A stretch of DNA of 30,703 nucleotides from a virus: positions 1 through 30,703 of the IMG/VR virus record IMGVR_UViG_3300044302_002162; one strand, given 5' to 3'. The notes below the pieces were generated by a model. The model searched no databases. It had not been told where the DNA came from and saw only the letters and a list, made by a program, of their open reading frames with translations. Positions 835-22,557 of the stretch are shown piece by piece. The position numbers and the translations under genes were made by a program. Within the stretch, counting starts at the first letter, position 1. Each line of letters begins with the position of its first letter.

Positions 835-1581
835 ATGAGCGTAGGAGAAAAAGTAGGGGATGCCCTCAATTGGGTGTCGGATCACGTTGTCGGATCCGGA
901 ATCCGCTCAAAAGGAGCCTACAACAGGGCTATTCGAGAAGACACCAAGGCAATGCAAGAGGGCAAACTTGGTTACACTCAAGGTAAAAAAGACTACCTGA
1001 AGACGGGAGCAACCGATGAGGCTCAAAGAAACGTCAAGGCTGCTTTAGATGATGCTTCAGAAACAGGAAAACTCGATTCGGGCACCGCGATTGAGGCAGC
1101 GAAAGCAGCGGCAGGAGAGGCTGCGAAGACATTCAAAGATGTCGAGATTATGAGTTCTATCGAGGCAGAGAATAGGCGAAAAGAAACTATGAATGCCCTC
1201 AACCAGAAGCGCCAAGAATGGAATAATGCCCTCAGTACGGTCGTGGGAGCGGGGGGAGAGGCTATGGCAGCGCAAGGAGCGGCAGCAGGAGGAACGGCGT
1301 CGCAAGCAGCCATATCAGCGGCCATGATGGCTTTCTGCTGGGTAGCGAGAGAGGTTTATCCCGAACACTGGCGAGATTGCAGAACTTATGTTCTTTTTGG
1401 AGCCCCAAAGTGGTTTCGAAACTGGTATGGGAAGAATGGAGAGCAGACTGCTGAGTGGCTTCGCGCTCACCCCTGGGCAAAAGTTCCCCTCAAGCCTGTA
1501 TTTAGATACTTTGCTTGGAGAGGAAAAGAGATGGCTCGTCGAGATCCTTCTCTCATCAGCGCACAAGCAGGTTTACTTTAG
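835..1581 (+). CDS. Small internal virion protein candidate (248 aa)
   Basis: ATG 835 follows TAGGAG (823-828) at 6 bases. Residues about 35-160 are Ala/Lys/Glu-rich and predicted helical, with a low-complexity Ala/Gly segment near 138-165 (GAGGEAMAAQGAAAGG). The last third (about 166-235) is different: aromatic and basic, starting FCWVAREVYPEHW and continuing through GAPKWFRNWYGKNGEQ and LRAHPWAKVPLK. I recall similar Cys-Trp-Val-Ala-Arg segments at the C-termini of other phage virion proteins, without an assigned function. Gene order (about 250, then 1,029, then 2,042 residues) resembles the T7 gp14-gp15-gp16 internal core series, so this could be the smallest ejection protein. That role is inferred from size and position, not homology. 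Confidence 0.55.
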   Translation: MSVGEKVGDALNWVSDHVVGSGIRSKGAYNRAIREDTKAMQEGKLGYTQGKKDYLKTGATDEAQRNVKAALDDASETGKLDSGTAIEAAKAAAGEAAKTFKDVEIMSSIEAENRRKETMNALNQKRQEWNNALSTVVGAGGEAMAAQGAAAGGTASQAAISAAMMAFCWVAREVYPEHWRDCRTYVLFGAPKWFRNWYGKNGEQTAEWLRAHPWAKVPLKPVFRYFAWRGKEMARRDPSLISAQAGLL

Positions 1582-1589
1582 GAGTTGTC

Positions 1590-4500
1590 GTGTCACGGAT
1601 TGGAGAATGGAACGAAGAGAGAAAGGCGCGTAGGGCTCGACGAAATCAGAACCTTCTGGCTCAAGAGAGTCTAAGGGAAAGACATCCCGAGTTTGCAGAA
1701 CTCTTGGATGAAAGGGCAGAAGATCAGGAACAACTCCTGGCTAAGAGAGCCGCAGACTATTGGGGCGTAGATGGGGTCGAGCTTATCGCTCCTCCTGACA
1801 TGACAGAGAGATACGACAAAGCTCTCGCCTTCTTGGCGAAAGCCGCAGAAGCCCAGGATGATTTGGTAAAAGCCACGGCTCCTAAACCTCATCCTCTTTT
1901 TGCAGAGTTGTTTAGCCTCTATCGTACAGAAGCGACCGCATTGTCTGGGGTTCAGGGAAAGAAGGCCACGGAATACGGAGACCTTCTGGATGCCCAGATG
2001 ACGAATCTCTCGGACATTCGTACAAAAGTACGAGCACGACTCCCCTCTTCTGGATCCGCGACCCGAAACAAATTGATTGAAATGAAGTCCCAGAACTTCA
2101 ACGAGGCTGGTGGCTGGGCCTCGGACCCCACTCGTACTGGAAACTGGGGATTTGATGTTTTAGAAATTATGCGAGACATCCCAGATCCAGAGGAGCAGTC
2201 TGCGGCTTTTGCATGGCTTTCGATGGAAACCGGAGTTTCTGTCGAAGACATGATGTCCGCAGCAGAGTCTAACCTGGGAGCAGGAAACCTCGATGCCCAG
2301 GATATGAGAACTCATTTGGCTCAGATGAGGAGAGTTCAAGAAGGACTGGGAGGAGAATATGACGAGGGAGTCGCTGCGGTAAACGGAGCATACAGTGATC
2401 TCCAGGGCGTCTACGGTGGACTATCTCGTCGAGGTCGAGAACTTGGAGACGCAGTTCTGCAAGCTCTAATCTCAGGAGACCCAGAACAAGTATCTGTAGC
2501 TCTCGGACTTTCTCGAAACCAGGATCTCCCCGAGGGTGCAGCTACAGCCCAGGGTCGACGTGTCATCGATGAGATGCTCAAGCTCGATGAGGATGTCGAT
2601 TACTGGATGCAAGACTCGGAGCATATCGAGAGGATTCTAAACTCTCCTTATTTTCGAGAAGCAGCACAAGAATACGGTTTTGAGGGATGGGAAGATCAAG
2701 CTACCTCTATGGATATCTTGGACCGATTCGAGAACTATCATGGAAGAGAGCAAGCTTCTACGACTGAGAGGAACAAGCTCAATGAGGCTTATCGAATTCT
2801 TGAAGGGCTTCAGGATAGCAATGCGTGGGAATACCTGAAGGCTCGTGTCTACGCAGGATCCCGTCGCAAGCTCTATGATGACTATGTGGCAGAGATGAAA
2901 GGGATTTCACCTCAACAAGCTGCCAGAGAGATTGAAGAAGTAGATGTCGAAGAGGAAGTCGCCACTCGACAGGCTCCCTCTGCTTTCGGTATAGATCTTC
3001 CTACTGGCCCTAATGGAGAACCTCTTTCCTTAGAAGAGTTTACTCGCCTCCTCCCTTCTCTCGCGAGATCTCTCCCTCGGGAAGCCATGGCGGAACTGAG
3101 AGCACAGGGAATCTCAAGTCCAGCGGAAGCCTACGAGTGGTACAAAGGAAGGTTTGCTCAAGAAACCCCCGCCGAGGAAACCTCTACCGAGGAAACTCCC
3201 GAAGAGGACGGACCCGGAACCATGCGCGAAGGGACAACGGTGATAGGAGGTCCGACGAGGATGAGGCCCGCAGGACCTCTTCTCCGTTCTGGAAGTCGAG
3301 GCCCCGCAGTAGCGGCCATCCAAAAAGAACTCAAACGTCTTGGGTATGACTTAGGAACTTCGGGTCCGAATGGAGATGGAATTGACGGACAGTTCGGTCC
3401 TGCAACCACCCGGGCCGTAAGAGCTTTCCAGGAAGCCCAAGGGATTGGAGTGGATGGAACAATAGGCACGGATACATGGGGAAAACTTGCTGAAGTGGGC
3501 GATCCCTCACCGAGTGCGGAAGCTGCTCCGGCTGAGCCTCCCCCACACATTCGAGTTCCTGATGCGGGAACGATTCGAGCCATGCAAAGGCTGGCCGATA
3601 GCCAAGGACGAACTCTTCCTCTGGGATCGAGTGGATTGTACTTAGAGCCCCAAGGTGAAGGTCAGCTATACCAAATTGAAGGCTTCAAAGAGTCCGGACC
3701 TCTTGTTCCTTATTCTCCTTCACAGCCCGCAGAGACTCCGGTAGAAACTCCAGCCGTGGACGAACCAGAACTGGTCGGAGGAGACACTGGACAAGTTCGA
3801 ACGGGAACAGACGGAGCCTACGACTACACTCTTGATTCCGATGGAACAATTCGATTTACTGTTCCTGGAGAAGATCGAGAACGAAAGATCACTCCACGAA
3901 ACCCCGGAGCCTACTACGCTGTCATGGAGGATGCTTTCGGGGAAACGGTTCCCCAGAATATGCAAGCCGTTGTCACAAATGCGCGTAATCGCTGGGCTAA
4001 TCGAAATCAGCCCGCAGATGACGACGAGATCAATGTTGATGATATCGAATTTGAGGTTTCTACATCAGACGATGAGGAAGTCCCAGAGGAAGTCTCAGAG
4101 GAAGTCTCAGAGGAAGAGGACGAGATCAATGTTGATGATATCGAATTTGAGGTTTCCACGGGGGATGAGGAGGAAGAAGGACAGATTGACGAACTCGACG
4201 TCTCGGCTCTCGGATCTCCTGCGGTTTCCACCGGAACTATGAGCGAAGGCTCAACGATGGTAGCAGGTCCGGACTCCGTGAGGCGTAGCCCTTCTCGAAG
4301 GCAGAAGATCAACGCATGGCTTCTCAATCAGGGAGTGAGCCAAACGGATGTGAATACGCTCAATCAGGCTGCGGATGAAGCCATGGGAGCCGCAGCGCCC
4401 GTAACTGGACAAGCCGCTGCCTCGCAAGCCGCTACTCCTACAAACTTTGAGGCCCAAACGAAGGGGCTTACGAACATGCCACCGAGCACTTCCGCTTCTG

Positions 4501-4679
4501 TAGCTTCTCCTGTTGGACTGGGACAAGCGAGCGAAACGGTTTCCGGAGGAGGAGGCAGCGGTAGATCAGCCGTAGCTCAACAGAACATTCAGGCAGTTCT
4601 GGATAGCGCGAAAAAGAAGAGATCAGATAGACCTCAACCTTCGGCGGCTGCCCCCGCGCCAGGACAGATGGCGGAGTAA
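1590..4679 (+). CDS. Large virion protein with peptidoglycan-binding domain (1029 aa)
   Basis: I place the start at GTG 1590, 5 bases after the GGAG of TTTAGGAG (the TAG is the previous stop). An earlier in-frame ATG at 1515 lies inside the previous gene. The first 500 residues are charged and helical, with an Arg/Lys-rich N-terminus. A PG_binding_1-type domain occupies about 564-636: LRSGSRGPAVAAIQKELKRLGY, then GIDGQFGPATTRAVRAFQ, then DGTIGTDTWGKL. A nearly identical motif flanks it on both sides (TMREGTTVIGGP at 544, TMSEGSTMVAGP at 883). Acidic repeats occupy about 811-870, and the C-terminus is Ala/Gly/Ser-rich. No lytic catalytic motif is seen. It is probably a structural or ejection protein that contacts cell wall during DNA entry; an alternative is a tail-associated wall-binding protein. 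Confidence 0.72.
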   Translation: MSRIGEWNEERKARRARRNQNLLAQESLRERHPEFAELLDERAEDQEQLLAKRAADYWGVDGVELIAPPDMTERYDKALAFLAKAAEAQDDLVKATAPKPHPLFAELFSLYRTEATALSGVQGKKATEYGDLLDAQMTNLSDIRTKVRARLPSSGSATRNKLIEMKSQNFNEAGGWASDPTRTGNWGFDVLEIMRDIPDPEEQSAAFAWLSMETGVSVEDMMSAAESNLGAGNLDAQDMRTHLAQMRRVQEGLGGEYDEGVAAVNGAYSDLQGVYGGLSRRGRELGDAVLQALISGDPEQVSVALGLSRNQDLPEGAATAQGRRVIDEMLKLDEDVDYWMQDSEHIERILNSPYFREAAQEYGFEGWEDQATSMDILDRFENYHGREQASTTERNKLNEAYRILEGLQDSNAWEYLKARVYAGSRRKLYDDYVAEMKGISPQQAAREIEEVDVEEEVATRQAPSAFGIDLPTGPNGEPLSLEEFTRLLPSLARSLPREAMAELRAQGISSPAEAYEWYKGRFAQETPAEETSTEETPEEDGPGTMREGTTVIGGPTRMRPAGPLLRSGSRGPAVAAIQKELKRLGYDLGTSGPNGDGIDGQFGPATTRAVRAFQEAQGIGVDGTIGTDTWGKLAEVGDPSPSAEAAPAEPPPHIRVPDAGTIRAMQRLADSQGRTLPLGSSGLYLEPQGEGQLYQIEGFKESGPLVPYSPSQPAETPVETPAVDEPELVGGDTGQVRTGTDGAYDYTLDSDGTIRFTVPGEDRERKITPRNPGAYYAVMEDAFGETVPQNMQAVVTNARNRWANRNQPADDDEINVDDIEFEVSTSDDEEVPEEVSEEVSEEEDEINVDDIEFEVSTGDEEEEGQIDELDVSALGSPAVSTGTMSEGSTMVAGPDSVRRSPSRRQKINAWLLNQGVSQTDVNTLNQAADEAMGAAAPVTGQAAASQAATPTNFEAQTKGLTNMPPSTSASVASPVGLGQASETVSGGGGSGRSAVAQQNIQAVLDSAKKKRSDRPQPSAAAPAPGQMAE
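4023..4156 (+). repeat. Internal 38-bp direct repeat with 12-bp acidic repeats between
   Basis: A 38-bp sequence starting GACGAGATCAATGTTGATG occurs at 4023-4060 and again, identical, at 4119-4156, a 96-bp (32-codon) period. Between the copies are tandem 12-bp units of the form GAGGAAGTCYCA at 4074, 4086 and 4098, with a decayed fourth at 4110. The encoded peptide is DEINVDDIEFEVST, then EEVPEEVSEEVSEEE, then DEINVDDIEFEVST. The perfect nucleotide identity indicates a recent in-frame duplication inside the 1029-residue virion protein. Confidence 0.93.
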
Positions 4680-4681
4680 CG

Positions 4682-7600
4682 ATGTCGACCACAGAGGACA
4701 CCTTTTCTCAGGAGATAGTCGAAGGCTATGAGCCTCCAGAAAAGACAGAAGAGCAAAAGAAACGAGAGCAGGCGATTCGAGATACTGCTGCTCGTTTCCA
4801 GGAACGGATGCAGGAGTCTCTGACTCCTCCCCGCTCTCGCCCAAGTGCTCCTTCTCCTCAACCCTCTCTTGTCGCTCCTTCTATCCGTCCTCAAACTTCT
4901 CAATGGGATTTCCAGACTCCCGGAGAAGAGTTCGTTGAGAGGGAGAAGAAAACATTCTATCCAGGCTTGCATGAAGCCACGTCTCCCAACCCCGCTCTCT
5001 TAGACACACCCCGGGCAACAGAAGAAGATGAGCGTCGAGAGTCTCCGCTCAACTTCCTTCAATCCGAAAAGCCTCCAGAAGGTTGGCAGCCAACTCCCCA
5101 AGACATCTCTCGTCTAATGGACGAGGGTCTGCTGCATAAGGATGATGTCAATAAGCCAGAATGGGTTTGGATGGCCGGAAGAGCTTCGGCTGAAAGAAGT
5201 AGAGCCCCAGGTGGTTGGTTCCAGAAAGCATCGGGAGATGCTCTCGTAGAAGAAGTCCGGTCTGGAGAGAGTGCCATCCAGAAAGCCATCTGGGGTACGG
5301 TCCCGATGAACTCCCGAGTTGTTCGGGGAGACATCGTGATCAATACCGCTAAGATGTATCGAGATACCCATCAGATTCATCGAACTAAGCTTCTTCGAGA
5401 ACTCGCAGAAGACCGGGGAATGAGTTTCCAACAACTTTCTCCGGAAGAACAACAAGAAATCGAGGAGAAAGCTCGAAGGAGAACTCAGCTCTCGGTGGCG
5501 GTATTCATGAACTCCGGAACTCGGATGTTCTATACCGATCGCTTTGATCGAGACATCACCCAAGAAATCAAAAACTCCTCGGGTCTCACTCGAATCTGGA
5601 AACTCCTTACTTCCCCGACGCAATACGGCGCGGTGGGCGCGAGTTTCCCAGACACTCAAGAGGGAGACATCGCCAGAATGCAGGCGACCCTCTCCCCCGG
5701 GCAGTTGAAAACCGAAAGTTTTATGAGCAAGTTCGGACGCATGTCCCTTTCAACTCTTTGGTCTCCGATGGTTTTCGGGGGGCATGAGTGGATGTCGGAA
5801 GACTACATCGACGCCGTCCGGGCCGGAGACGAGCTTATTCTCCACATCGGAGATATCGCAGAAAGAATTGATGGAGTAGGGCCAGGAGAGGAGACTTCCA
5901 CAGCAGCCAAGTGGACATCGGGGGTGGGTGTAGGTGCCATCATTATCGGTGAGCCTGACATTCTTTCTCTGGCTCTTCTCCCTTTCGGTCTTGCGGCAAA
6001 AGGACTTCGTGTCGCAAAGGCCGCTTCGATTGCAGGGAAAGCAAGACGATCTGCTGAGACTCTCAGAAGGCTTCGGCAGGCAGTCGAAAATGGAGAAGAG
6101 CTTCCAGAAGTAGCCAAGAGACTCGGGGCATACGATGAAGCCGTGAAGCAAGCTGTCCAGCTTCGAGCCCTCTCTGAATGGAACCTCAATGAGGTGACTC
6201 GGGTAAGAGGAACGGGTGGTGTAGAAGAAGCTGAAAGGCTTTACCAACAAGCAGACGCTGCCGCTAAAAAAGCAGATGACCTCAGAGACGAACTCGCTAC
6301 GATGTCTCCTGAACTGCTGGGAGCAGAAACCGAAGCTCGAAGAGCACTCTTGGAGTTCCAAGCTGCGGAAGAGGAGCTTTTCGTCGCCTATGCTCGTCGA
6401 GAGATGTCAGAAGTCCAGAAGAACGAGTTCCTTCAACTCTTTGGACTCTCTCCAGAAGAGGCTGCTCGAATTCAGTACCGGAAAGACGTTCCTTCTTTCG
6501 AGCAAGGGGCGAGAAATGCTGAAAAGGCGGCTAAGGAGATTCGTAAAAGGGCAAGAGCACTTCGAAAAGTAAAGGCGAATAAGGCTCTCCTGGATACCTA
6601 CGACAGAAAAGCCCGAGAGTTGGGGAGCCTCCTCCGTACAATGGAAGAAGGATTCTACGGGGTCGAGGAAGCCACGACCAAAGGAGGCAAAAAACTCCGA
6701 GCCGGATGGGAAGTCCTCACGGGAGAAGCCCTCCCCCTGGGCAAAATCTCTCGAACAGGAGAGCCCTTCCGGATTCCTGTCTATGGACAACAGATTCGAA
6801 TCCCCACAGAGCGAGGAGGAACTGCTCTTCGAGTCGTTGAGGGAATTGAGATTCGAGGTCCAAAGACAAAGAAACTCTCTGATGGGCCAGACAATCGAAT
6901 CATTCTCAAGGTGAGAGGACCCTCCGGAGAGATTGAGGAGTTTGTCCATCCGTTTAGAATCAAGAAGCAGGCTGCGGAGAACCTCCGTACTAAGATCCTG
7001 GAATTCGAAGAAACCCATAAGATTCTAACCGCTGATGGCGGTCTGATGGATGAGTTGACTACCCTGGATAGGCTTGCCGCCCAGGCTGACGAGTACGCGG
7101 CTTCTCTGCGAATTGATGGTCCTGCCGGGTTGAAACTTCAAGAGTTCGAAGACACATCCCAAGCTCTTATTGATGCCTCAAAGAGATACAAAAAAGCAGC
7201 CAAGGACGCCAAGCTTCCGGAGAAGAATCTCGAAAAACTCACGAAAGATCACACAGGAAAGGGAAAAGCCCTTGTTCGTGCAGAACTGGAAGCACTCGAA
7301 AAGGGCAACATGCGTAGGGTCTACGCAGACGCCCTGGAGGACACAGCGAGAGGCTTAGACAACTTCATCGATACGGGTCTCAAGAACATCGGAATCATGG
7401 GATTCAAAGGACCCAAGCAGATTGCCCAGAGTATCAAGGGCCTGGTCAAGATGAGCGGAGACGATCTCAAGACCTTCGGAATGAAGGTTAGTGATCGAAA
7501 AGTCGAGGAAGGCTACCGCGAGATCCTGAAAAAGAACTCTACCTTCAAGGCTCAAGAGAAGGGTAGGAAAGAAGCGGTTGTTGAGTTTGACGCAGATGGA

Positions 7601-10600
7601 ATCATTCGAGATCTAATCCCTCGAATGGGTGGAGCAGAAAACTTATACAAGTTCGTTCAAACTCCAGAAGGAGCCGGACTGTTAGACCTTTTCGAAGCAG
7701 GAGTTCGAAGGAAGACCACGACGGTCGGACTTCGAGGAGAAACTGCCTCTAAAGTTCAGCAGTCTATTCGAGAAGCAGTTCGTCACGGAGAAGCAAGGAA
7801 ACTCTTCACAGACGATGTTGTTTGGGGACGAGCAATCCATGAAGCCTGGAGAGATCTCGGCTTGGAGAATAGGTCTACTCGCCTAAATCGACTCAAGAAC
7901 ATGGCGAGCTATTTCCCTCTGGTAGGGAAGAAGTTCCGAGGATCTTTCAAGAATGTAGGATTTCGAGTAGGAGAATACTCGAAAGATGTAGAAGAAGCCT
8001 TCATGGCTACCGAGCGACTTCTCAATCGTGGTCGGATGGAACTTCTCGAAATCGGACGGCTGGAGGAGTTTGGAGATACTCCCTATGAGAGACTCTCCAA
8101 TTGGCTCGACTACCAGGGAGAAGTCCGTCTTAGAGAAGGAACAAGTCAGTGGTCTGTGGCTACTGGCCTTGGAACTCCCTATGAAAAAGGAGCCCTCGCG
8201 ATTCTCGCAGATCGAAGAATCGATCCAAGGACACGAGAGATAGGAGCAGCAGAACTTTCTCAGAGAGCACGGACACATCGAAGAACTCTTGAAAACCTCC
8301 TAAGAAAAAGCCTGGGCAAGACTCTCGATGACGGAACCGAGATCACACAAGACTTCATCGATGAAGCAGTTGAGGCAGCAGGAGAGATCACAGAAGATCT
8401 CATGGCCCTTACTCCAGACGGAGGAGTAAGTGGAGCCCCACTTAGCCTGACTGCTGTTTCTCGTATGTGGCTTCCTCGGGGAGAAGGCATCGATGTCACC
8501 CCCGAGCAGGGACGTCTCCTCATGGGGCTTGCCCGAAAGTTTCTTCAGAGTTCAAACACTTTCGGTCCCGCAAAGAATGCCCTCGGTGAAGTGGTCGATG
8601 CTGGATTTTCAGAGAAAATGCGAAAAGCAACCTTCGCCATCCTGGGCAGAACAGAGAGCAGCTTTGCTCGGGCAAATGCTTTCGCAGCCGGAGGCTTTCA
8701 AGCAGCCGCCACGATGGGAACCCTGAGCCATCGACTCGGAAGAGCGTCAGGTCTTCGAATCTCTGCGGAGCAAGCGACAGACATCAATCGAATCATGATG
8801 GGAGATGTCGAAAACGTAAAAGACATGCCCGCCGCGATGGATGCGCTCAACCGAATGGGCATGCCGTTTACTCAGAAGTCCGTAGATCGAGGAGTAGGAA
8901 GCAAGATCTCCGGGTCCGGAGGCGGAGTTGACCTAAAAACTCTCGTCGAGGTCGGATCGGATCCAAGCACAGCTTCCTTTGTTCCGCTCAACCTTCTGAA
9001 AGAATTGGAAAGAAAGGCAGGAAGGCTCTCAAAAGAACTTGAATCTTTCTCCCCGTCACCCCGAGATGCTTCTCAGCTTTTCTACAATAGAGCAGTCCAG
9101 GGATACCTGAGTTTGTGGAGGGGGTCTGCGGTTACAGGACTCTGGGTTCCCAACCCTCGATACTGGACAAACAATATGATGGGCGACTTTTCCCAAATGT
9201 GGGAAGAGGTCGGATTCGCTCGTGCAGCCCAGAGAAGTTTTATCAATGCCCCGACAAACCTTCCTTTTGTGGGACGGTGGCTTCAGACTAAAACGCTCTA
9301 CATGGCAGAGAAGGTAGCGGGAAAATCAGGTCGAGGCCAAGCCCTCCCGGGCATCATCGACACCTGGACAAATCCTTGGTTGGGTCGAGTATTCAAAGGA
9401 GAAAAGGGCCAATTCGTAACCAAGAACGGGGACATCGTAACCTACGATCAAGCTCGAACATGGGCGATTGAGGATGGTATTTCCGAAGCCTTCGTTCGCG
9501 AAGAGCTTATGGATATGTACAGCCGCACTGCGGGCGACTTTGATGCCATGGGCACAGAGATGGGCAAGTGGTGGAAGAACGATGGCATCTATTACCATGC
9601 TGCTCAAACACAGGAACGGCAACGAGTGGCTCTATACCTGGACATGATCCAGCGAGGAGCCACCAGAAAAGAAGCGGCAGAAGCGACGAAGCGGGCTCTC
9701 TATGACTGGTCTCATGGAATCGCAGAATGGGAAGCGAGAACGATTGCTCGCATCGTTCCCTTCTGGAGATTCTGGAGACTTCGTTTGAAGCAGACTGAAC
9801 AGTCTTTCATCGAACCTTTCGTTCGTCCGGCAGATGAGTACGCGAAGAAGGCTCTTCGAGGAAACACTCGACTCGCTCGACTGCGACAGCAGACCGTAAT
9901 CTTTCCTTCTCTTCCGGATTTCGTCTACCAAGACAACCCTCATGCCGGAATGACGGAGAACGAGAAAGTAGACATGCTTGCTCGCCAACTCTACCCCACC
10001 TGGGCTGACACCAAACCTAAGTTGGGGATTGTCCCTTGGAGCCCAATTCGGAGGATGAAATACCTGGAGAGAACCGGAAAAGAGATGACCCATGGAATGA
10101 TTACTCTTCCTATGGGATCCTCTCTTGATGGATTCGATATGGCAACCGCCCTCTACACGGGCATGTTCATGGTCGCAAACGAGACCGCTAAGACACTAAA
10201 ACTTCCTCACGCGGAGTTTCAGGCTCCCGGGGATGTTGCTGCTCGATTCTTTGAACCGATCCTGGGGGGCATGATGCCTCTCCCGGAGTCTGCTATTCGT
10301 GCTTTGATGTCTGATATGAACGTAGACTTGGACTTCCAGATTCGAGGAGCAGACCGATATCTGTCTCCCGAGGAAGAACAAACTTGGAAGAAGTTCCCAG
10401 ATTGGATGCCTGTCTTGGGAGCAGAGATGCAATTCGATCACGAAGCAGGTCGATACAAAGTCCCACAAGAAACCTACTGGGCGTGGAGAGCACTTCCCTT
10501 CACAACAACTCAAATCCAACCTTGGATTGGAGCGTTTTCTTCTCCCGAGTGGGACGAGGGACTCAAGCAGGGCCTTTGGGCAGCCACAAAACGCTTGACG

Positions 10601-10810
10601 GGAATCGGTCGAGAGATTCCTTTCAACGTAAACAAGGAAATCGATGGCAGACGGCGTGATATGCAGGAGCAGTTCAAACGATTCGTGAAAACGCAATCCG
10701 CTACCATGCAGCCATACCGAGGTCGGAGACGAGAAGGACTGCCTGACTTGGAGCAAAGATGGGTAGATGAAGAGGGGAGGAGAACTCGAAGAATCGAGGG
10801 AGAAGATTAG
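4682..10810 (+). CDS. Giant virion protein (2042 aa), probable DNA-ejection protein
   Basis: ATG 4682 lies 2 bases after the previous TAA, with GGAG (in GGCGGAGTAACG) upstream. At 2042 residues it is the largest gene here. The N-terminus is Pro/Ser/Gln-rich and disordered-looking. A hydrophobic stretch at about 412-441 (SGVGVGAIIIGEP then LALLPFGLAAKG) could insert in a membrane. Residues about 450-1250 are charged and largely helical. Near 1490 is NPRYWTNNMMGDFSQMWEE and near 1690 is ARIVPFWRFWRLRLKQ. This pairing resembles the C-terminal region of very large phage proteins (large polyvalent protein families, LPD38-like), a resemblance I recall rather than searched. I see no lysozyme or RNA polymerase motif. 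Size and position match a gp16-type ejection protein. A large polyvalent protein acting on host defence is the alternative. Confidence 0.65.
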   Translation: MSTTEDTFSQEIVEGYEPPEKTEEQKKREQAIRDTAARFQERMQESLTPPRSRPSAPSPQPSLVAPSIRPQTSQWDFQTPGEEFVEREKKTFYPGLHEATSPNPALLDTPRATEEDERRESPLNFLQSEKPPEGWQPTPQDISRLMDEGLLHKDDVNKPEWVWMAGRASAERSRAPGGWFQKASGDALVEEVRSGESAIQKAIWGTVPMNSRVVRGDIVINTAKMYRDTHQIHRTKLLRELAEDRGMSFQQLSPEEQQEIEEKARRRTQLSVAVFMNSGTRMFYTDRFDRDITQEIKNSSGLTRIWKLLTSPTQYGAVGASFPDTQEGDIARMQATLSPGQLKTESFMSKFGRMSLSTLWSPMVFGGHEWMSEDYIDAVRAGDELILHIGDIAERIDGVGPGEETSTAAKWTSGVGVGAIIIGEPDILSLALLPFGLAAKGLRVAKAASIAGKARRSAETLRRLRQAVENGEELPEVAKRLGAYDEAVKQAVQLRALSEWNLNEVTRVRGTGGVEEAERLYQQADAAAKKADDLRDELATMSPELLGAETEARRALLEFQAAEEELFVAYARREMSEVQKNEFLQLFGLSPEEAARIQYRKDVPSFEQGARNAEKAAKEIRKRARALRKVKANKALLDTYDRKARELGSLLRTMEEGFYGVEEATTKGGKKLRAGWEVLTGEALPLGKISRTGEPFRIPVYGQQIRIPTERGGTALRVVEGIEIRGPKTKKLSDGPDNRIILKVRGPSGEIEEFVHPFRIKKQAAENLRTKILEFEETHKILTADGGLMDELTTLDRLAAQADEYAASLRIDGPAGLKLQEFEDTSQALIDASKRYKKAAKDAKLPEKNLEKLTKDHTGKGKALVRAELEALEKGNMRRVYADALEDTARGLDNFIDTGLKNIGIMGFKGPKQIAQSIKGLVKMSGDDLKTFGMKVSDRKVEEGYREILKKNSTFKAQEKGRKEAVVEFDADGIIRDLIPRMGGAENLYKFVQTPEGAGLLDLFEAGVRRKTTTVGLRGETASKVQQSIREAVRHGEARKLFTDDVVWGRAIHEAWRDLGLENRSTRLNRLKNMASYFPLVGKKFRGSFKNVGFRVGEYSKDVEEAFMATERLLNRGRMELLEIGRLEEFGDTPYERLSNWLDYQGEVRLREGTSQWSVATGLGTPYEKGALAILADRRIDPRTREIGAAELSQRARTHRRTLENLLRKSLGKTLDDGTEITQDFIDEAVEAAGEITEDLMALTPDGGVSGAPLSLTAVSRMWLPRGEGIDVTPEQGRLLMGLARKFLQSSNTFGPAKNALGEVVDAGFSEKMRKATFAILGRTESSFARANAFAAGGFQAAATMGTLSHRLGRASGLRISAEQATDINRIMMGDVENVKDMPAAMDALNRMGMPFTQKSVDRGVGSKISGSGGGVDLKTLVEVGSDPSTASFVPLNLLKELERKAGRLSKELESFSPSPRDASQLFYNRAVQGYLSLWRGSAVTGLWVPNPRYWTNNMMGDFSQMWEEVGFARAAQRSFINAPTNLPFVGRWLQTKTLYMAEKVAGKSGRGQALPGIIDTWTNPWLGRVFKGEKGQFVTKNGDIVTYDQARTWAIEDGISEAFVREELMDMYSRTAGDFDAMGTEMGKWWKNDGIYYHAAQTQERQRVALYLDMIQRGATRKEAAEATKRALYDWSHGIAEWEARTIARIVPFWRFWRLRLKQTEQSFIEPFVRPADEYAKKALRGNTRLARLRQQTVIFPSLPDFVYQDNPHAGMTENEKVDMLARQLYPTWADTKPKLGIVPWSPIRRMKYLERTGKEMTHGMITLPMGSSLDGFDMATALYTGMFMVANETAKTLKLPHAEFQAPGDVAARFFEPILGGMMPLPESAIRALMSDMNVDLDFQIRGADRYLSPEEEQTWKKFPDWMPVLGAEMQFDHEAGRYKVPQETYWAWRALPFTTTQIQPWIGAFSSPEWDEGLKQGLWAATKRLTGIGREIPFNVNKEIDGRRRDMQEQFKRFVKTQSATMQPYRGRRREGLPDLEQRWVDEEGRRTRRIEGED

Positions 10811-15195: not shown

Positions 15196-15387
15196 ATGGA
15201 ACAGCGTGTTCGAAAACTTGAAACAGACGTAGCCGTCCTGGGCCAACGAACGGACACGGTAGAGGGAGAAGTGTCCTCAATTCGCCAGGACATCCAAGGG
15301 ATCAAGAAAGAGATTCACAAAGCCCAGGGGTTGATCCTCGCAACTGTAGTCATCATGCAGTGCATTGCGATCTTCATGGAGGGGTGA
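15196..15387 (+). CDS. XhlA-like coiled-coil/transmembrane protein, lysis cassette (63 aa)
   Basis: ATG 15196 follows a G-run (GTGGGGGGTAA). Residues 1-42 form a heptad coiled coil (VRKLETDVAVLGQRTDTVEGEV), and residues about 44-61 form one hydrophobic segment (GLILATVVIMQCIAIFM). This arrangement, an N-terminal coiled coil with a single C-terminal membrane helix in about 60-90 residues, is that of haemolysin XhlA-family proteins, which sit next to phage holins and assist lysis. It ends in TGA directly abutting the ATG of the next membrane protein. Holin accessory is the likely role; it could itself be the holin. Confidence 0.6.
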   Translation: MEQRVRKLETDVAVLGQRTDTVEGEVSSIRQDIQGIKKEIHKAQGLILATVVIMQCIAIFMEG

Positions 15388-15546
15388 ATGGAATCGGAGT
15401 TCGTCGCGCACCTCTTAGACCTGGGCATGACTGGTATGTTCGTCGGGTATCTCATCTACCAGAATAAAAAGATGGGACTCCAACTCACTGCCATGACAAA
15501 GAAATATGAAGAGCTTTTCGAACGTGTACTGAAGGCGGTCGAATAA
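15388..15546 (+). CDS. Tiny N-terminal-anchored membrane protein, holin candidate (52 aa)
   Basis: ATG 15388 directly follows the TGA of the XhlA-like gene, with GGAGGGG just before it (SD inside the previous gene). The frame runs 52 codons to TAA 15544-15546. Residues about 5-24 (FVAHLLDLGMTGMFVGYLIY) are a membrane segment, and residues 25-52 are charged and helical (TKKYEELFERVLKAVE). The topology is the mirror of its neighbour: membrane helix first, amphipathic tail second, as in BhlA/UviB-like small holin or bacteriocin-release proteins. Function inferred from size, topology and position. Confidence 0.6.
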   Translation: MESEFVAHLLDLGMTGMFVGYLIYQNKKMGLQLTAMTKKYEELFERVLKAVE

Positions 15547-15586: not shown

Positions 15587-16075
15587 ATGGCACACTTCTC
15601 TCTCGACGAGTTTGTTGGAGCAATCCAAGAAGCCGTCGTCAAATCAACAGATATAGCAGAGCAGCACGAACTCAATCATATTCAGCAGGAAGAATACTGG
15701 ATTGATACAGGAGAGAAAGACAAAGACGGAGAGCCTATCTTCCGTCCTCGAATGGTGACAGTTCGTCTCCCTATTTGGGACGAGGGCAAACAAGTCCAGA
15801 AGGACATCCAAGTTCCAATGCAAACCCTCGTCACCGGGCAATCTCTCGCCATCGAAGAACTAACAGTTCAGATGGATGTCGAGCTTCAAGGAATGGAAGA
15901 TGGAGCAGATTTAGGATGTACCCATAGGAAACTGAAGATAAATCCTTCGATTGGGGGAAATGGGTGGTTCGCTAAAAAGAGAAATACTGCTAAGATTTCA
16001 ATCACTTTCAAGGGGCAAGACCCCCCAGAAGGTTATGCAAGGATTGACAACCAACTCATCAAACTACTTCCGTAG
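15587..16075 (+). CDS. DUF2589-like protein, copy 1 (162 aa)
   Basis: ATG 15587 follows CAAGGAACAGGC. The 162-residue product starts with a helical segment (LDEFVGAIQEAVVKSTDIAEQHE) followed by a beta-rich part with VQKDIQVPMQTLVTGQSLAIEELTVQ and VELQ. The phrase 'v-vPl-sLv---sL-i-e--v-f' is characteristic of DUF2589, a bacterial and phage family with no known function. The C-terminal part (NTAKISITFKGQDPPEGYARI) matches the family's closing strands. It is followed at 9 bases by a second member, with TAGGAG as stop/SD fusion. Family assignment is from remembered pattern. No membrane segment or catalytic residue is visible. Confidence 0.62.
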   Translation: MAHFSLDEFVGAIQEAVVKSTDIAEQHELNHIQQEEYWIDTGEKDKDGEPIFRPRMVTVRLPIWDEGKQVQKDIQVPMQTLVTGQSLAIEELTVQMDVELQGMEDGADLGCTHRKLKINPSIGGNGWFAKKRNTAKISITFKGQDPPEGYARIDNQLIKLLP

Positions 16076-16084
16076 GAGAGAACA

Positions 16085-16732
16085 ATGCCTGATGGCCTCG
16101 TAAAAATGTCCGACCAGTTCGGCGGTTTGCCCATGGATCAACTGATCGGTGGTCCCCTCAAAGCAGCTTGTGACTCTCAAGTCCAGCTTGCGAAGGCTAC
16201 CGCTGACTTCATCCAGAATGTGGGTCTTGAGACCGACGCGAATGGAACGATAAAAGCTCGAACGGTAGATTTCACTTACACGAAGCCCGTCAATGATGGG
16301 AATGGTGGCTATACCGAGGTCACAAATCAACTCGATGTTCCGATCCTTGCGATCCTGAACACTCCATCACTTCAAGTCAAAGAGGTTGAAGTCGACTTCA
16401 CCATGGAAGTGAAGTCCAGTACCTCTGAGAAGAGCAGTCGGGACTACGAAGCCACTCTTGATACAGAAATCAAAGCAGGCTGGGGTCCAGTCAGTGTTGA
16501 TGTGAAGATCCACGGTTCTGTCTCCTCGAAGAGCGAGAACACCCGGTCTTCTGACAACTCCGCGAAGTACAACGTCAAAGTCATCGCTCGGGATGACGGT
16601 ATGCCAGAAGGTCTGAAGCGTTGTTTGGACATCGTTCAACAGGCGATTGCAGAAAAGCCCCAAGCTGGGCCTCCTGTGAACCAGCCTGTAAATCCTCCCG
16701 CGAATCGCGCGAATCCTCCGGGCAATGGGTGA
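16085..16732 (+). CDS. DUF2589 family protein, copy 2 (215 aa)
   Basis: ATG 16085 follows TAGGAGAGAACA. The N-terminal LPMDQLIGGPLKAACDSQVQLAKATADFI is the clearest DUF2589 signature in the window. It is followed by LDVPILAILNTPSLQVKEVEVDFTMEV, the family's core strands, and by a Lys/Ser-rich beta segment (KIHGSVSSKSENTRSSDNS). The last 25 residues are Pro/Asn-rich and disordered (PPVNQPVNPPANRANPPG). It lies between copy 1 and the 75-residue gene inside the lysis cassette. DUF2589 has no established function. Tandem paralogues may form a hetero-oligomer, which is inference. Confidence 0.75.
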   Translation: MPDGLVKMSDQFGGLPMDQLIGGPLKAACDSQVQLAKATADFIQNVGLETDANGTIKARTVDFTYTKPVNDGNGGYTEVTNQLDVPILAILNTPSLQVKEVEVDFTMEVKSSTSEKSSRDYEATLDTEIKAGWGPVSVDVKIHGSVSSKSENTRSSDNSAKYNVKVIARDDGMPEGLKRCLDIVQQAIAEKPQAGPPVNQPVNPPANRANPPGNG

Positions 16733-16738
16733 TAAGTC

Positions 16739-16966
16739 ATGAAGAATAGAGGAAAAATCCTACAACAAGCAATCATCATGGCCGAAGATCTCTTCCCTGG
16801 GCCGAAGAAAGGGAAAGAGAAACGAGCTTGGGTGATCAAGTTCATAAACGAGCATGTCAACTTCCCAATCCTCAATGAGAGGCAAGAGGCAAAAATCATT
16901 GGATTCGCTGTTGATGTTCTATGCGACCTCATGTTCCAAAAAGTCCAGGAGATCAAGCAACAATGA
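16739..16966 (+). CDS. Small helical protein (75 aa)
   Basis: ATG 16739 lies 6 bases after the previous stop, with only a weak purine-rich GTGATAAGTC upstream, so coupling is likely. The product is 75 residues, helical, with a basic motif GPKKGKEKRAWVIKFINEH and an amphipathic C-terminal helix (EAKIIGFAVDVLCDLMFQ). It resembles the soluble part of some small phage holin-family proteins, but no clear membrane span is present. Its TGA overlaps the next start as ATGA. It may act with the DUF2589 proteins or with the lysin. Unrecognised. Confidence 0.55.
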   Translation: MKNRGKILQQAIIMAEDLFPGPKKGKEKRAWVIKFINEHVNFPILNERQEAKIIGFAVDVLCDLMFQKVQEIKQQ

Positions 16967-17556
16967 TCCCTGCGCTACTCCAACACGTTCAGTCTCTCGG
17001 CCACAAGGTTTTCGATGGTGGCCATGCTTACAATCTGAACATTATTGGTATCCGAAACAAAGAACAGGGAAACTCTTTCAACGATTTCCTCTGTTGCGCC
17101 TACCGAGAAGAAGAAAACGGTCCCTGGATCGTGAAGTATTGGGAGGCAACGACTGACCCGGGCAAGTTCTGTCTTGAGAATCCGGAAGTCTATGGAACGT
17201 CCGCAGGAACAGCCATCATAGTCCCTGGGCAGTACCGAGGTGTCTACAAACTCGATCTGCACCGAGGGAAGTATGAGGCTTTGTGCCAACGAAACGGAAA
17301 GATCAAAGTCTACCGAGACGGAAACCGAGATGATGTCGTAGATATGGATCCCGATACTATCCAAGAGGGATATTTCGGATGCAACATCCATAAAGCTGGC
17401 ACAAACTCGACCAGAGTAGATAAGTGGTCCGCAGGGTGCCAGGTTTTTGCCCGGAGTAAAGATTTCGAGGAGCTAATCGCCTTGTGCCATAAGCAAATCG
17501 AACATCACCCCAACTGGGCAGAAACCTTCACATACACCCTCATCACGGAGTGGTAA
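16963..17556 (+). CDS. YkuD-like cell-wall hydrolase candidate, putative endolysin (197 aa)
   Basis: I chose ATG 16963 because it overlaps the previous stop as ATGA; the in-frame ATG at 16921 would sit inside the previous gene. The 197-residue product has no signal peptide. Near the C-terminus NIHKAG (His143) is followed by VDKWSAGCQVF (Ser156-x-Gly158-Cys159). This His...Ser-x-Gly-Cys arrangement matches the active site of L,D-transpeptidase (YkuD) fold enzymes. The upstream IIVPGQYRGVYKLDLHRGKYEALCQ reads like the preceding strands of that fold. Position between small membrane proteins and a spanin-like protein supports a lytic role. Substrate and bond cleaved cannot be told; a wall-modifying rather than lytic enzyme is the alternative. 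Confidence 0.6.
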   Translation: MIPALLQHVQSLGHKVFDGGHAYNLNIIGIRNKEQGNSFNDFLCCAYREEENGPWIVKYWEATTDPGKFCLENPEVYGTSAGTAIIVPGQYRGVYKLDLHRGKYEALCQRNGKIKVYRDGNRDDVVDMDPDTIQEGYFGCNIHKAGTNSTRVDKWSAGCQVFARSKDFEELIALCHKQIEHHPNWAETFTYTLITEW

Positions 17557-17558
17557 AA

Positions 17559-17783
17559 ATGGAAAAGATCAAAGCCCTACTGAAGAAACACGGTGTGACA
17601 GTCTCCCTTGCGGGAGCCAGTCTCATAATCGGAACCGCTTATGGTTCTTGTGTTCTTTCTCCTGAAGCACCTTCTACCCCAGAAGTAGTAGAAGCAGCAG
17701 AAGAGCCAAAACCAGAAGAAGCTCCCACTGAGGAAGCTTCGGAAGAAGCTCCCCCGGAGGAAGCTCCAGAGGTCGAAGAATAG
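17559..17783 (+). CDS. Small exported Pro/Glu-rich protein, spanin-like (74 aa)
   Basis: ATG 17559 follows CGGAGTGGTAAAA; an in-frame GTG at 17550 overlaps the previous gene and is the alternative start. The product has a basic N-terminus, a hydrophobic segment at about 12-28 (VTVSLAGASLIIGTAYG) and Cys at residue 29, so YGSC may be a weak lipobox (Tyr at -3 is unusual). The rest is a Pro/Glu/Ala-rich tail (EEAPTEEASEEAPPEEAPE). Small proline-rich lipoproteins at the end of lysis cassettes are typical outer-membrane spanins. The tail is far more acidic than usual, so the role is tentative. Confidence 0.5.
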   Translation: MEKIKALLKKHGVTVSLAGASLIIGTAYGSCVLSPEAPSTPEVVEAAEEPKPEEAPTEEASEEAPPEEAPEVEE

Positions 17784-19593: not shown

Positions 19594-20047
19594 TAGAAGT
19601 CTCCTTATGTCCGAGTGGAAGTTCGAGTTGTTGAGGCTCACATCGAAATCCGCCCTGCCAATCCTCTACGTCGAAAGGATAGACTTGGGTGATTCGTTCG
19701 AGCTTCTCCTCGGAGAGCAAAAAGACAGGGCGGCCTGCCCGAACTGCCAGATCAACAATCTGAGCAGTCGCCCTGCCTACGGTGGTGCCGGGGACTACGA
19801 TGAAATCGTAGTAAGGCTTTCGAGTGATAGCGTGCTCTCTTTTCACGACACTCTTGGCCCAGACGTTCCAGTCTCCTCGACAGTTGATCCGAAAGTCGTC
19901 CCTTCCCGAGATGACCGACACTTTCAGATCCTTACCCGCACGCTCTCCCTTGGCACGGATAAACTCTCTTATTCTAATACTCGTCTGGGCGATAGTTTTC
20001 TCATCCTCGCCTGACGGGTGTGCGTAAAATACTCTAATGTTTTTCAT
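19574..20047 (-). CDS. Rossmann-like protein of unknown function (157 aa)
   Basis: ATG at 20047 overlaps the polymerase stop as ATGA. The 157-residue product starts with a strand-turn NIRVFYAHPSGEDE, has a second strand LKVSVISGRDDFR, and a central YYDFIVVPGTTVGRATAQI followed by VDLAVRAGRPVFLLSEE. The 'D-iVv-gtsvG-a-qi--A---grPvf-l' pattern resembles nucleoside 2-deoxyribosyltransferase-like and SLOG or DUF4406 proteins that bind nucleotides. The catalytic Glu expected in deoxyribosyltransferases appears to be Gln (TAQIVD), so that activity is doubtful. A nucleotide-sensing or nucleotide-modifying role is possible. Confidence 0.6.
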   Translation of the reverse strand: MKNIRVFYAHPSGEDEKTIAQTSIRIREFIRAKGERAGKDLKVSVISGRDDFRINCRGDWNVWAKSVVKREHAITRKPYYDFIVVPGTTVGRATAQIVDLAVRAGRPVFLLSEEKLERITQVYPFDVEDWQGGFRCEPQQLELPLGHKETSNAEKTS

Positions 20048-22557
20048 ACTTCACTCCAACGGTTTCCAATGTCTGCTCCAGCGGTGTAATCGAGGAGAGG
20101 GTTCACTTTCCTGCGTCGGTTCATGGCCTGTTCCAGAACTTCCGCAGCAAACTCTGCTTCCCCCTCGGGCACCTCTAAGTAGAGAGCATCGTGGCCGTGA
20201 TTGATGAGCCACTCCACAGGGAGAGTTTCTTTCGGGGGATTGATTGCTTCTGTCGCGAACCAATCTTGAACCCCGTAAATAAGTTCGAGCATTGCTTCAT
20301 TCACAATCACTACCCCTCCTGACTGGATGGGGTGATTTACAAGCTCGTTGATTTTGTCTTCATTTCTGAAGTAGCGGCGACGATCCCAAAGGGAGTCACC
20401 GATGAATCCTTCTTTCCGGTAGCGAGTTTCAATCATTCGCCACCACTTCGGGATCTCGGGATCTGCTCTCTTCAGTCCTTCGACGACTTGACGGACGTCC
20501 TCAACCGTAAGGTGAGAGTAGAGGAGGTTTCCTTCGTCGTCTTCGACTGAAACGATTTGCTCGTGGATTCGCTTAGTAGAAGCGGCATACTGCCAAGCGT
20601 ACCGGGTGTTTTTTGTGATGTCTCGGGTTGCTTTGAAGGTCGCCTTGCCCTTCTCCTTACGATCACTGGGAGCCCCGTCGAGTTTCCAGATTCCTTTGCC
20701 ATATACGATCTCCATTGTTTCGTTGTGTGGGTCAAGTCCCTCTCGAATAACTCGAAGGGAATGCTTTGCTCGGGCTTCCTCTGCAATAAGCCGCAGTTCA
20801 AGCTGGTCCATGTCTGCGCCAATGAGCACACACCCCTTCCGGGCAACAAAGATGTCCCGCAAACTATAGGGGATGTTCTGAGCATTCGGGTTGCTTGAAG
20901 AGTATCTTCCCGTAGCGGGGAGCCTGTTGTAGCTGGGATGAATCCGAGTGATTTGCTTCTCAATCAAAGGTCGGATGTATGTGCCCAAGAGTTTGGTGAC
21001 TTTCCGATAAGTTCGAACCGACCGAAGAAACGCGACTCGGTGCTCCTCCAATCCGTAATGAACAATCATCGTGCGGAGAGTTTCGTCATCCGTGGAAGGG
21101 TCTCCGGTCTTCTCAGAGTAATGATGAGGAGCAAGGCCCCACTCAGAGAAGAGAAGATTCGCCATCTGTCGGGTGCTTTGGGGATTGAATCCCTCGCCTA
21201 CGATGTCTTGGCAGCGTCGGAGATGAATCTTTGCTTCCGTATCCAACCTGACCAAATGTTCAGTAGCCTTCCCGAGGTCAACTCCCATGCCTACACTTTC
21301 CATCGTAGCGCCCAGGGATTGAAGCATGTGCTCCCGAGGAAGGAGATGTTGCTGGCTTCGCTTCTTCACATCCCGGGCAAGAGGCTTCGTGATTCGAGCC
21401 GTGACGCATACATCCTTTCCGCAGTAGATATGCAGTTCTTCGTCTGTCTTAGCCTGGACTGCCGTGTGGTCTGCCTTCCACGCTTCTGGGTTGTCTGTGT
21501 AGAAAGAACCGACAAACCCCAGGTTATGGGGAAGTTCATTGTCTGCGAGAAGATGGAGAAGAATCGTATCGCAGGTGAGATTGGGGGTGATCCCCAGCCA
21601 GGACTCTACGCAAAGACGATCATATTGTCCTGCATTATGTCCGATAAGAGGAATCTGTGGATCCAGAAAGAACTTCTTTAGGGAGTTTTCGAGTTTCTCA
21701 ATCTCACCCAAACTGGCTAAGTAACTCCCATCGATAGATCGAATCTCGACAACGACTGCTTCTTCCTCCGTTCCCAGACCTACACATCTGACGTTCGCGG
21801 TCATGGGGTCGATGCCATCTGTCTCCAAGTCATAGGCAACTGGAGACTTGTTTGCCCTCCACCGGGCAACGAAGTTCTCCAGAACTTCCACATCGGCTGT
21901 GCGAGTAATCTTAGGCTCGGGCCAGTCCAGCGTTCCTGAGAAGAAACGAAATGCTTTTCGCAGGTCATGACGAAACACTTCTCGATAGGCTGCTTGTCTA
22001 AGAACCCAAGCTGGGTGCATCGTATATCCAACCTCCAAGATCACATCTGGATCCCAAGGGGCTATCACGAGTTCGCACCCTCCTCGGATGTTCATGATGG
22101 AGACATCTCCCCCTCGGATTGCTCTCGCTGCTGTCTTGCCCAAGCAAATGATGCGTTTGATTCCGGTGGCTTTCAGTTCCTCGTAGAGGAGAGTCTTGCA
22201 GGCATCCAGCGGACGCAGGAGCTTTACAGCTTCTTCTCCCTTCTCCCGGGCCTTCTTCTCTCTTCTCCGATTGATTCGAGAAACCTGAATGTTGACCGCT
22301 TCCAGGTCATTCTTGGGAGGACGACATCGAACAGTGTTCACGATGTAGCACTTATCCCGAGGAATGTTTAGGGCATTGAGGGCAGCTTGGAGTTCTAAGC
22401 CACTCGGACCAACGAAAGGTCTCCCCTCAACAGTCTCGTGCATTCCGGGTGATTCTCCCAGAATGATCACACGATCATCATCGTGCGTTTCAGATAGCAC
22501 TGGGGTAGCGGCACCGCCCTGATTTAGGGCGCAGTTTTTACAGATTGGGTAGAGCAT
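20044..22557 (-). CDS. Uracil-DNA glycosylase / 3'-5' exonuclease / family A DNA polymerase fusion (837 aa)
   Basis: Replicative polymerase with three parts. Residues 1-210 are a family 4 (Fe-S) uracil-DNA glycosylase: Cys6, Cys9, Cys120 and Cys138 as cluster ligands, GESPG at 34-38, GRPFVGPSG at 45-53, NTVRCRPP, and the HPAWVLR loop at 181. Residues 230-400 are a DEDDy proofreading exonuclease: D243/E245, N308/D313 and Y378-x3-D382. Residues 410-837 are the polymerase: TGRYSSSNPNAQNIP, motif A ADMDQLELR (D582), motif B R645-K649-Y653-Y657, motif C HDA (D790). Tyr653 corresponds to E. coli Phe762, the T7-like state. Ala replaces the Gly after motif B Tyr and the Glu of HDE. The start is fixed by an in-frame TAG four codons upstream, yet no SD precedes it. 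Confidence 0.93.
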   Translation of the reverse strand: MLYPICKNCALNQGGAATPVLSETHDDDRVIILGESPGMHETVEGRPFVGPSGLELQAALNALNIPRDKCYIVNTVRCRPPKNDLEAVNIQVSRINRRREKKAREKGEEAVKLLRPLDACKTLLYEELKATGIKRIICLGKTAARAIRGGDVSIMNIRGGCELVIAPWDPDVILEVGYTMHPAWVLRQAAYREVFRHDLRKAFRFFSGTLDWPEPKITRTADVEVLENFVARWRANKSPVAYDLETDGIDPMTANVRCVGLGTEEEAVVVEIRSIDGSYLASLGEIEKLENSLKKFFLDPQIPLIGHNAGQYDRLCVESWLGITPNLTCDTILLHLLADNELPHNLGFVGSFYTDNPEAWKADHTAVQAKTDEELHIYCGKDVCVTARITKPLARDVKKRSQQHLLPREHMLQSLGATMESVGMGVDLGKATEHLVRLDTEAKIHLRRCQDIVGEGFNPQSTRQMANLLFSEWGLAPHHYSEKTGDPSTDDETLRTMIVHYGLEEHRVAFLRSVRTYRKVTKLLGTYIRPLIEKQITRIHPSYNRLPATGRYSSSNPNAQNIPYSLRDIFVARKGCVLIGADMDQLELRLIAEEARAKHSLRVIREGLDPHNETMEIVYGKGIWKLDGAPSDRKEKGKATFKATRDITKNTRYAWQYAASTKRIHEQIVSVEDDEGNLLYSHLTVEDVRQVVEGLKRADPEIPKWWRMIETRYRKEGFIGDSLWDRRRYFRNEDKINELVNHPIQSGGVVIVNEAMLELIYGVQDWFATEAINPPKETLPVEWLINHGHDALYLEVPEGEAEFAAEVLEQAMNRRRKVNPLLDYTAGADIGNRWSEV

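What the first reader, a model, noticed from the sequence alone, without database searches (positions are those of the whole stretch)
15587..16732. Tandem DUF2589 genes embedded in a lysis cassette
Two adjacent, diverged DUF2589-type proteins (162 and 215 residues), with the first stop fused to the second SD, lie between the tiny membrane proteins and the wall-hydrolase candidate. DUF2589 has no established function. Guilt by association with holin-like, YkuD-like and spanin-like genes suggests a role at the envelope or in virion assembly. The divergence and coupling suggest a hetero-oligomer. The 75-residue helical gene that follows, overlapping the hydrolase start, may belong to the same unit.
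Basis: partly seen in the sequence, partly recalled or inferred. Interest (0 to 1): 0.62.

Follow-up and report, generated by a model that had tools for sequence, protein, structure and literature searches.

The report
Paired DUF2589 proteins beside wall-cutting enzymes
Two sister proteins of unknown function are always encoded as a pair and, in several unrelated phages and in ordinary bacterial chromosomes, sit beside enzymes that cut the bacterial cell wall, which suggests that they help those enzymes burst the cell, possibly by punching holes in a membrane.

Summary
Both genes are DUF2589 (PF11655; 66 and 149 bits, cut-off 23). The pair is not a local curiosity: all 80 viral loci and all 18 comparable bacterial loci carry one short (S) and one long (L) copy, although gene order varies. 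In 17 of 25 sequence-distinct pairs a peptidoglycan hydrolase lies within about 2 kb (16 within 1 kb), drawn from seven families (GH108, GH19, GH24, N-acetylmuramidase, Amidase_3, Pesticin-type, YkuD-like). Many are bacterial operons with no virion genes recognised nearby. Across ten genomes, 6 of 18 GH108/GH19/GH24 copies sit beside a pair (0.025 expected). In one phage group a peptidoglycan-binding domain is inserted inside S. L, but not S, carries a serine/threonine-rich amphipathic beta-hairpin with a glycine/aromatic tip, as in aerolysin-type pore formers. Neither window protein, nor the 12 hydrolases checked, has a clear transmembrane segment or signal peptide. Best reading: a two-component accessory of hydrolase-driven lysis; the pore step is inferred, not shown. 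The 75-residue gene travels with the hydrolase, not with DUF2589. Exceptions exist (L034, L036, L075, subtype II). Structure models were poor.

The parts
15587..16075 (+). DUF2589 short (S) gene, 162 aa; long N-terminal helix plus beta core, no TM or signal peptide
16074..16080 (+). Shine-Dalgarno AGGAGAG of the L gene, overlapping the stop codon of S
   Evidence: sequence
16085..16732 (+). DUF2589 long (L) gene, 215 aa
16415..16555 (+). Codes for the S/T-rich amphipathic beta-hairpin of L (residues 111-157), candidate membrane-inserting hairpin; tip AGWGPV at residues 131-136 (16475-16492)
   Evidence: function inferred
16739..16966 (+). 75-aa helical protein, weak holin-family match (E 0.025); travels with the hydrolase, not with DUF2589
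16963..17556 (+). Peptidoglycan hydrolase candidate (PHROG 3000 / endolysin PHROG 33083; H...SxGC motif), 231 bp after L
15196..15387 (+). 63-aa coiled coil plus C-terminal TM, XhlA-like (weak)
15388..15546 (+). 52-aa protein with borderline N-terminal hydrophobic segment, holin-like by position only
17550..17783 (+).

Best explanation
The two genes are the S and L subunits of a conserved two-component module that works together with a peptidoglycan hydrolase to open the cell. Shown: obligate pairing of S and L, recurrent adjacency to hydrolases of seven families in phages and bacteria, no clear TM or signal peptide in the window's S and L or in the 12 hydrolases checked. Inferred: S and L fold on a common alpha+beta core and co-assemble in the cytoplasm; L carries a long S/T-rich amphipathic beta-hairpin with a glycine/aromatic tip that inserts into a membrane as part of an oligomeric beta-barrel, letting the signal-less hydrolase reach the wall; S, which in one phage group carries an inserted peptidoglycan-binding domain, would direct or cap the assembly. 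In bacteria, where LuxR-type regulators often lie nearby, the same module would drive regulated self-lysis or release. Confidence in the hydrolase-partner part is about 0.8; in the membrane-hairpin mechanism about 0.35-0.4.
For: S+L pairing in 80/80 viral loci and 18/18 subtype-I bacterial loci, with order S-L, L-S or L-85aa-S, so pairing survives rearrangement. Adjacent hydrolases: GH108 (L103, L106, L107, L145), GH19 (L138, L142, L054, L067), GH24 (L111, L139, L073), PF11860 (L109), Amidase_3 (L140), Pesticin-type (L143), PHROG 3000 (window group, L032, L073). Genome-wide: every GH108 copy in G001 and G002 lies beside a pair, at both pairs in G002; the only GH19 in G166 and in G173; 6 of 18 copies against 0.025 expected. 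PG_binding_1 inserted within S of L053 (same arrangement in L038, alignment). L hairpin: S/T 31% against 12% in the rest of L and 11% in the matching S region; 17 of 32 distinct L pass an S/T plus beta-amphipathy filter, 0 of 30 S, 2 of 241 background proteins. Aerolysin-family insertion regions are S/T-rich (23-44%), amphipathic, with aromatic residues (PMC4823867, PMC4179158). The 12 hydrolases checked lack signal peptides by hydropathy.
Against: No profile link to any pore-forming family even at E up to 10; no solved relative; AlphaFold models are weak (pLDDT 64 and 52) and the hairpin region scores below 50. Amphipathic strands also occur in ordinary beta-sandwiches. Several phages with a pair also carry small TM proteins that look like holins, so a second pore is not obviously needed. 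Some pairs have no adjacent hydrolase (L034, L036, L075, L108, L110, L112, L137, L148, subtype II). Archaeoglobus, which lacks peptidoglycan (own knowledge), has four DUF2589-related genes (PMC3949148), so the core function cannot be wall-specific.
Confidence: 0.45

Rival explanations
1. S and L are soluble partners of the hydrolase: a chaperone, inhibitor or activator complex that keeps the enzyme quiet or concentrates it on peptidoglycan, without touching membranes.
For: Tight hydrolase linkage; no TM segments; PG_binding_1 inserted in S.
Against: One pair type would have to serve enzymes of unrelated families; does not explain the S/T hairpin conserved in L only; some pairs have no adjacent hydrolase.
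Confidence: 0.22
2. S and L are virion components (decoration, internal or tail-tip proteins) that sit near lysis genes because both are late genes.
For: The pair lies in the late strand among small putative virion proteins; next to portal in L036 and directly after the Gp23 major capsid gene in L075.
Against: Bacterial operons pair them with hydrolases and regulators with no virion genes recognised among the listed neighbours; L034 has them among recombination genes.
Confidence: 0.15
3. S and L act on the outer membrane as a spanin or disruptin substitute, the last step of lysis in diderm hosts.
For: Hydrolase linkage; bacterial hosts reached here are mostly Pseudomonadota; membrane-type hairpin.
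Against: No signal peptide or lipobox in S or L; a DUF2589 gene on a Streptomyces plasmid (monoderm) and in Archaeoglobus.
Confidence: 0.12
4. The linkage is a by-product: phage-derived cargo islands in which DUF2589 and hydrolases hitch-hike with no joint function.
For: Patchy spread: 9 of 398 Pseudomonadota genomes, plasmid copies.
Against: Different hydrolase families next to related pairs, and both pairs of G002 each beside its own GH108; 6 of 18 against 0.025 expected.
Confidence: 0.06

Closest known systems
Pfam DUF2589 (PF11655)
   Same: Both window proteins match over the full model well above cut-off
   Different: The family has no assigned function; the S/L division, pairing and hydrolase linkage are not part of it as far as seen here, and only one paper in the held library mentions it
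Holin-endolysin-spanin lysis cassettes and the type 10 secretion system
   Same: Signal-less hydrolase encoded beside small proteins that would have to let it out; used by bacteria for lytic release of cytoplasmic proteins (PMC10847048)
   Different: S and L have no transmembrane helices; bacterial DUF2589 operons show no recognised holin, and include an unrelated conserved ~85-aa protein
Aerolysin-type beta-pore-forming proteins
   Same: S/T-rich, alternating hairpin with aromatic tip inside a beta-rich soluble protein (PMC4823867, PMC4179158)
   Different: No sequence or profile similarity; made without signal peptide; two obligate paralogous subunits

Membership tests
DUF2589 (PF11655) | Profile score above the curated cut-off, full-length match | tested here: met
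   67.6 and 149.5 bits, cut-off 23; profile 2-153 and 1-153 of 154
Holin | One or more transmembrane segments | tested here: not met
   Window p1 max 19-residue KD 0.70, p2 0.86; only 5 of 76 L and 0 of 71 S exceed 1.6
Holin | Timed membrane hole formation releasing endolysin | not testable with these tools
   Needs experiment
Aerolysin-type beta-pore-forming protein | S/T-rich amphipathic insertion hairpin | tested here: met
   L only; 17 of 32 distinct L against 2 of 241 background proteins; the window's own L shows it, at 30-31% S/T
Aerolysin-type beta-pore-forming protein | Sequence or profile similarity to the family | tested here: not met
   No such hit at E up to 10 for ten L proteins
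Aerolysin-type beta-pore-forming protein | Pore-forming-module fold | tested here: inconclusive
   AlphaFold models pLDDT 64 and 52; no PDB match with E under 0.001 for the S model; the second structural aligner was closed
Lysis cassette / T10SS | Peptidoglycan hydrolase in the same cluster | tested here: met
   231 bp downstream in the window; 17 of 25 distinct pairs within about 2 kb
Lysis cassette / T10SS | Holin and spanin in the same cluster | tested here: inconclusive
   Small TM proteins near many phage pairs, no confident holin profile; none recognised in bacterial operons

The most novel reading that the evidence does not exclude
DUF2589 S+L form a beta-barrel pore assembled from the cytoplasmic side, a protein-made exit for peptidoglycan hydrolases that does the job of a holin without transmembrane helices, shared by phages and by bacterial self-lysis operons.
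Probability: 0.28. Interest if true: 0.85.

Novelty: new variant of a known kind. Interest (0 to 1): 0.62.

Why it matters
DUF2589 is an old orphan family. A robust link to interchangeable peptidoglycan hydrolases gives it a testable role in lysis, in phages and in bacterial operons that do not look like prophages. If the membrane hairpin is real, it would be a holin-like exit built from beta-strands, and the bacterial operons would be an undescribed kind of regulated lysis module.

Tried and rejected
Solved relatives by sequence: none. PDB and viral fold searches: only poor models to search with; PDB nothing significant; the S model found one BFVD viral protein at E 1.6e-7 and another at 7e-3, neither named, and the L model found nothing. 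Defence-system library: no hit for S or L; the hits of neighbouring LuxR-type proteins to CARF models cover only their C-terminal part (probably the HTH) and were discounted. Named phages: one unannotated record matches L, none matches S. The 75-aa gene as part of the unit: rejected. My first reading that lake phages lack the hydrolase link was wrong: GH19, GH24 and PHROG 3000 enzymes were found beside several of them.

Full report
Observation. Both proteins are full-length DUF2589, PF11655. The window is a 30.7-kb virus record.

Pairing. Relatives were fetched from viral contigs with each protein. An iterated profile found exactly two DUF2589 genes in every one of 80 viral loci. Two types separate cleanly by profile score: short (S, like the first gene) and long (L, like the second). 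The window group has S then L; the freshwater phage group has L then S. In Pseudomonadota, 9 of 398 genomes carry the family; with loci from genomes and plasmids, all 18 subtype-I bacterial loci hold one S and one L, some with a conserved ~85-aa gene between them. Pairing that outlives changes of gene order points to two parts of one machine. S-L spacing in viruses is often 8-9 bp but reaches 1 kb in some, so strict translational coupling is not universal.

Hydrolase link. In the window group the pair is followed by a PHROG 3000 endolysin-like enzyme whose invariant residues form a YkuD-type H...SxGC motif. Other phages have GH19 (L054, L067) or GH24 plus PHROG 3000 (L073) beside the pair. Bacterial pairs lie beside GH108, GH19, GH24, PF11860 muramidase, Amidase_3 or Pesticin-type enzymes. 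Several of these families share the lysozyme-like fold (own knowledge), so seven families means at least three folds: lysozyme-like, zinc amidase, YkuD-like. After clustering L at 80% identity there are 30 groups; leaving out five subtype-II groups, 17 of 25 have a hydrolase within about 2 kb and 16 within 1 kb. That scan looked only for the families already noticed, so it is a lower bound and is partly post hoc. Genome-wide counts give an independent check: in ten genomes there are 18 GH108, GH19 and GH24 copies, and 6 lie beside a pair, against 0.025 expected at random. The three families were chosen after seeing neighbours, so the P value (about 4e-13) is indicative only. The gene lists of the bacterial loci show housekeeping and regulatory genes, often LuxR-type response regulators, and no virion genes that I recognised; I did not run a prophage finder.

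Domains and hairpin. In L053 and its kin the S protein carries a PG_binding_1 domain between its last two conserved strands. At the corresponding place L has a stretch of about 47 residues, 31% S/T, strongly beta-amphipathic (mean z 2.95), with a tip such as GWGPV, GFWGM or NYGIF. A combined filter is passed by 17 of 32 distinct L, 0 of 30 S and 2 of 241 background proteins, and both background hits look like low-complexity linkers. Published aerolysin-family structures have insertion regions that are amphipathic and 23-44% S/T (PMC4823867), with aromatic residues near the hairpin (PMC4179158). This is resemblance, not homology: no pore-former profile was hit, and the structure models are too weak to decide. 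Foldseek found one BFVD viral protein at E 1.6e-7 for S, probably a family member. By hydropathy the window's S and L and the 12 hydrolases examined have no signal peptide-like or clear TM segment; 5 of 76 L proteins elsewhere just exceed the usual cut-off. If the enzymes act on the wall, something must let them out.

Tree. The window L group is one clade (100/99), sister to L035/L036 (99/99), within a set that also holds bacterial sequences; the freshwater group forms its own clade with one gammaproteobacterial sequence (L108) beside it (99/95). The pair has therefore probably moved between viruses and bacteria at least twice; the direction is not resolved.

Exceptions and limits. L034 has the pair among recombination genes, L036 next to a portal, L075 next to the major capsid gene. 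Subtype-II bacterial loci (L141, L144, L146, L147, L149) have L plus a different 225-270-aa protein and no confirmed hydrolase. Archaea and Bacteroidota genomes could not be surveyed; Archaeoglobus has a run of four DUF2589-related genes (PMC3949148).

Verdict. Observation confirmed. A two-component lysis accessory is likely; a membrane-inserting beta-hairpin is the most economical mechanism I can offer, at moderate confidence.

Noticed in passing
window 20044-22557 (-): Family A DNA polymerase with an N-terminal uracil-DNA glycosylase superfamily domain fused to the exonuclease and polymerase domains.
   Followed up: no
window 1515-4679 (+): 1054-aa protein, probably virion-associated, with a PG_binding_1 domain at residues 595-658.
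   Followed up: no
window 4682-10810 (+): 2042-aa protein with no Pfam match, probably a large internal virion protein.
   Followed up: no
L042 9195-9398; L043 9485-9691; L052 7712-7915; L054 7764-7967; L067 7002-7205; L073 6199-6402; L075 7717-7920: A 67-aa Cys4 zinc-ribbon-like protein lies beside the DUF2589 pair in the freshwater phages examined; no confident family.
   Followed up: partly
L138 9317-9583; L139 6997-7263; L140 8458-8712; L103 8685-9083; L109 7948-8211: A conserved ~85-aa protein is part of most subtype-I bacterial DUF2589 operons, absent from the viral loci, and has no Pfam match.
   Followed up: partly
L107 8962-9468: A third, very divergent DUF2589-like protein seems to follow the pair in Luteibacter; no Pfam hit.
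   Followed up: no
L141 8577-9275; L144 7354-8028; L146 7424-8242; L147 1776-2498: Subtype-II loci: L next to a 225-270-aa protein whose N-terminus resembles DUF2589 but which the profile misses.
   Followed up: no
L034 5425-8648: A 100-kb phage has the pair directly after SbcC/SbcD-like recombination genes.
   Followed up: no
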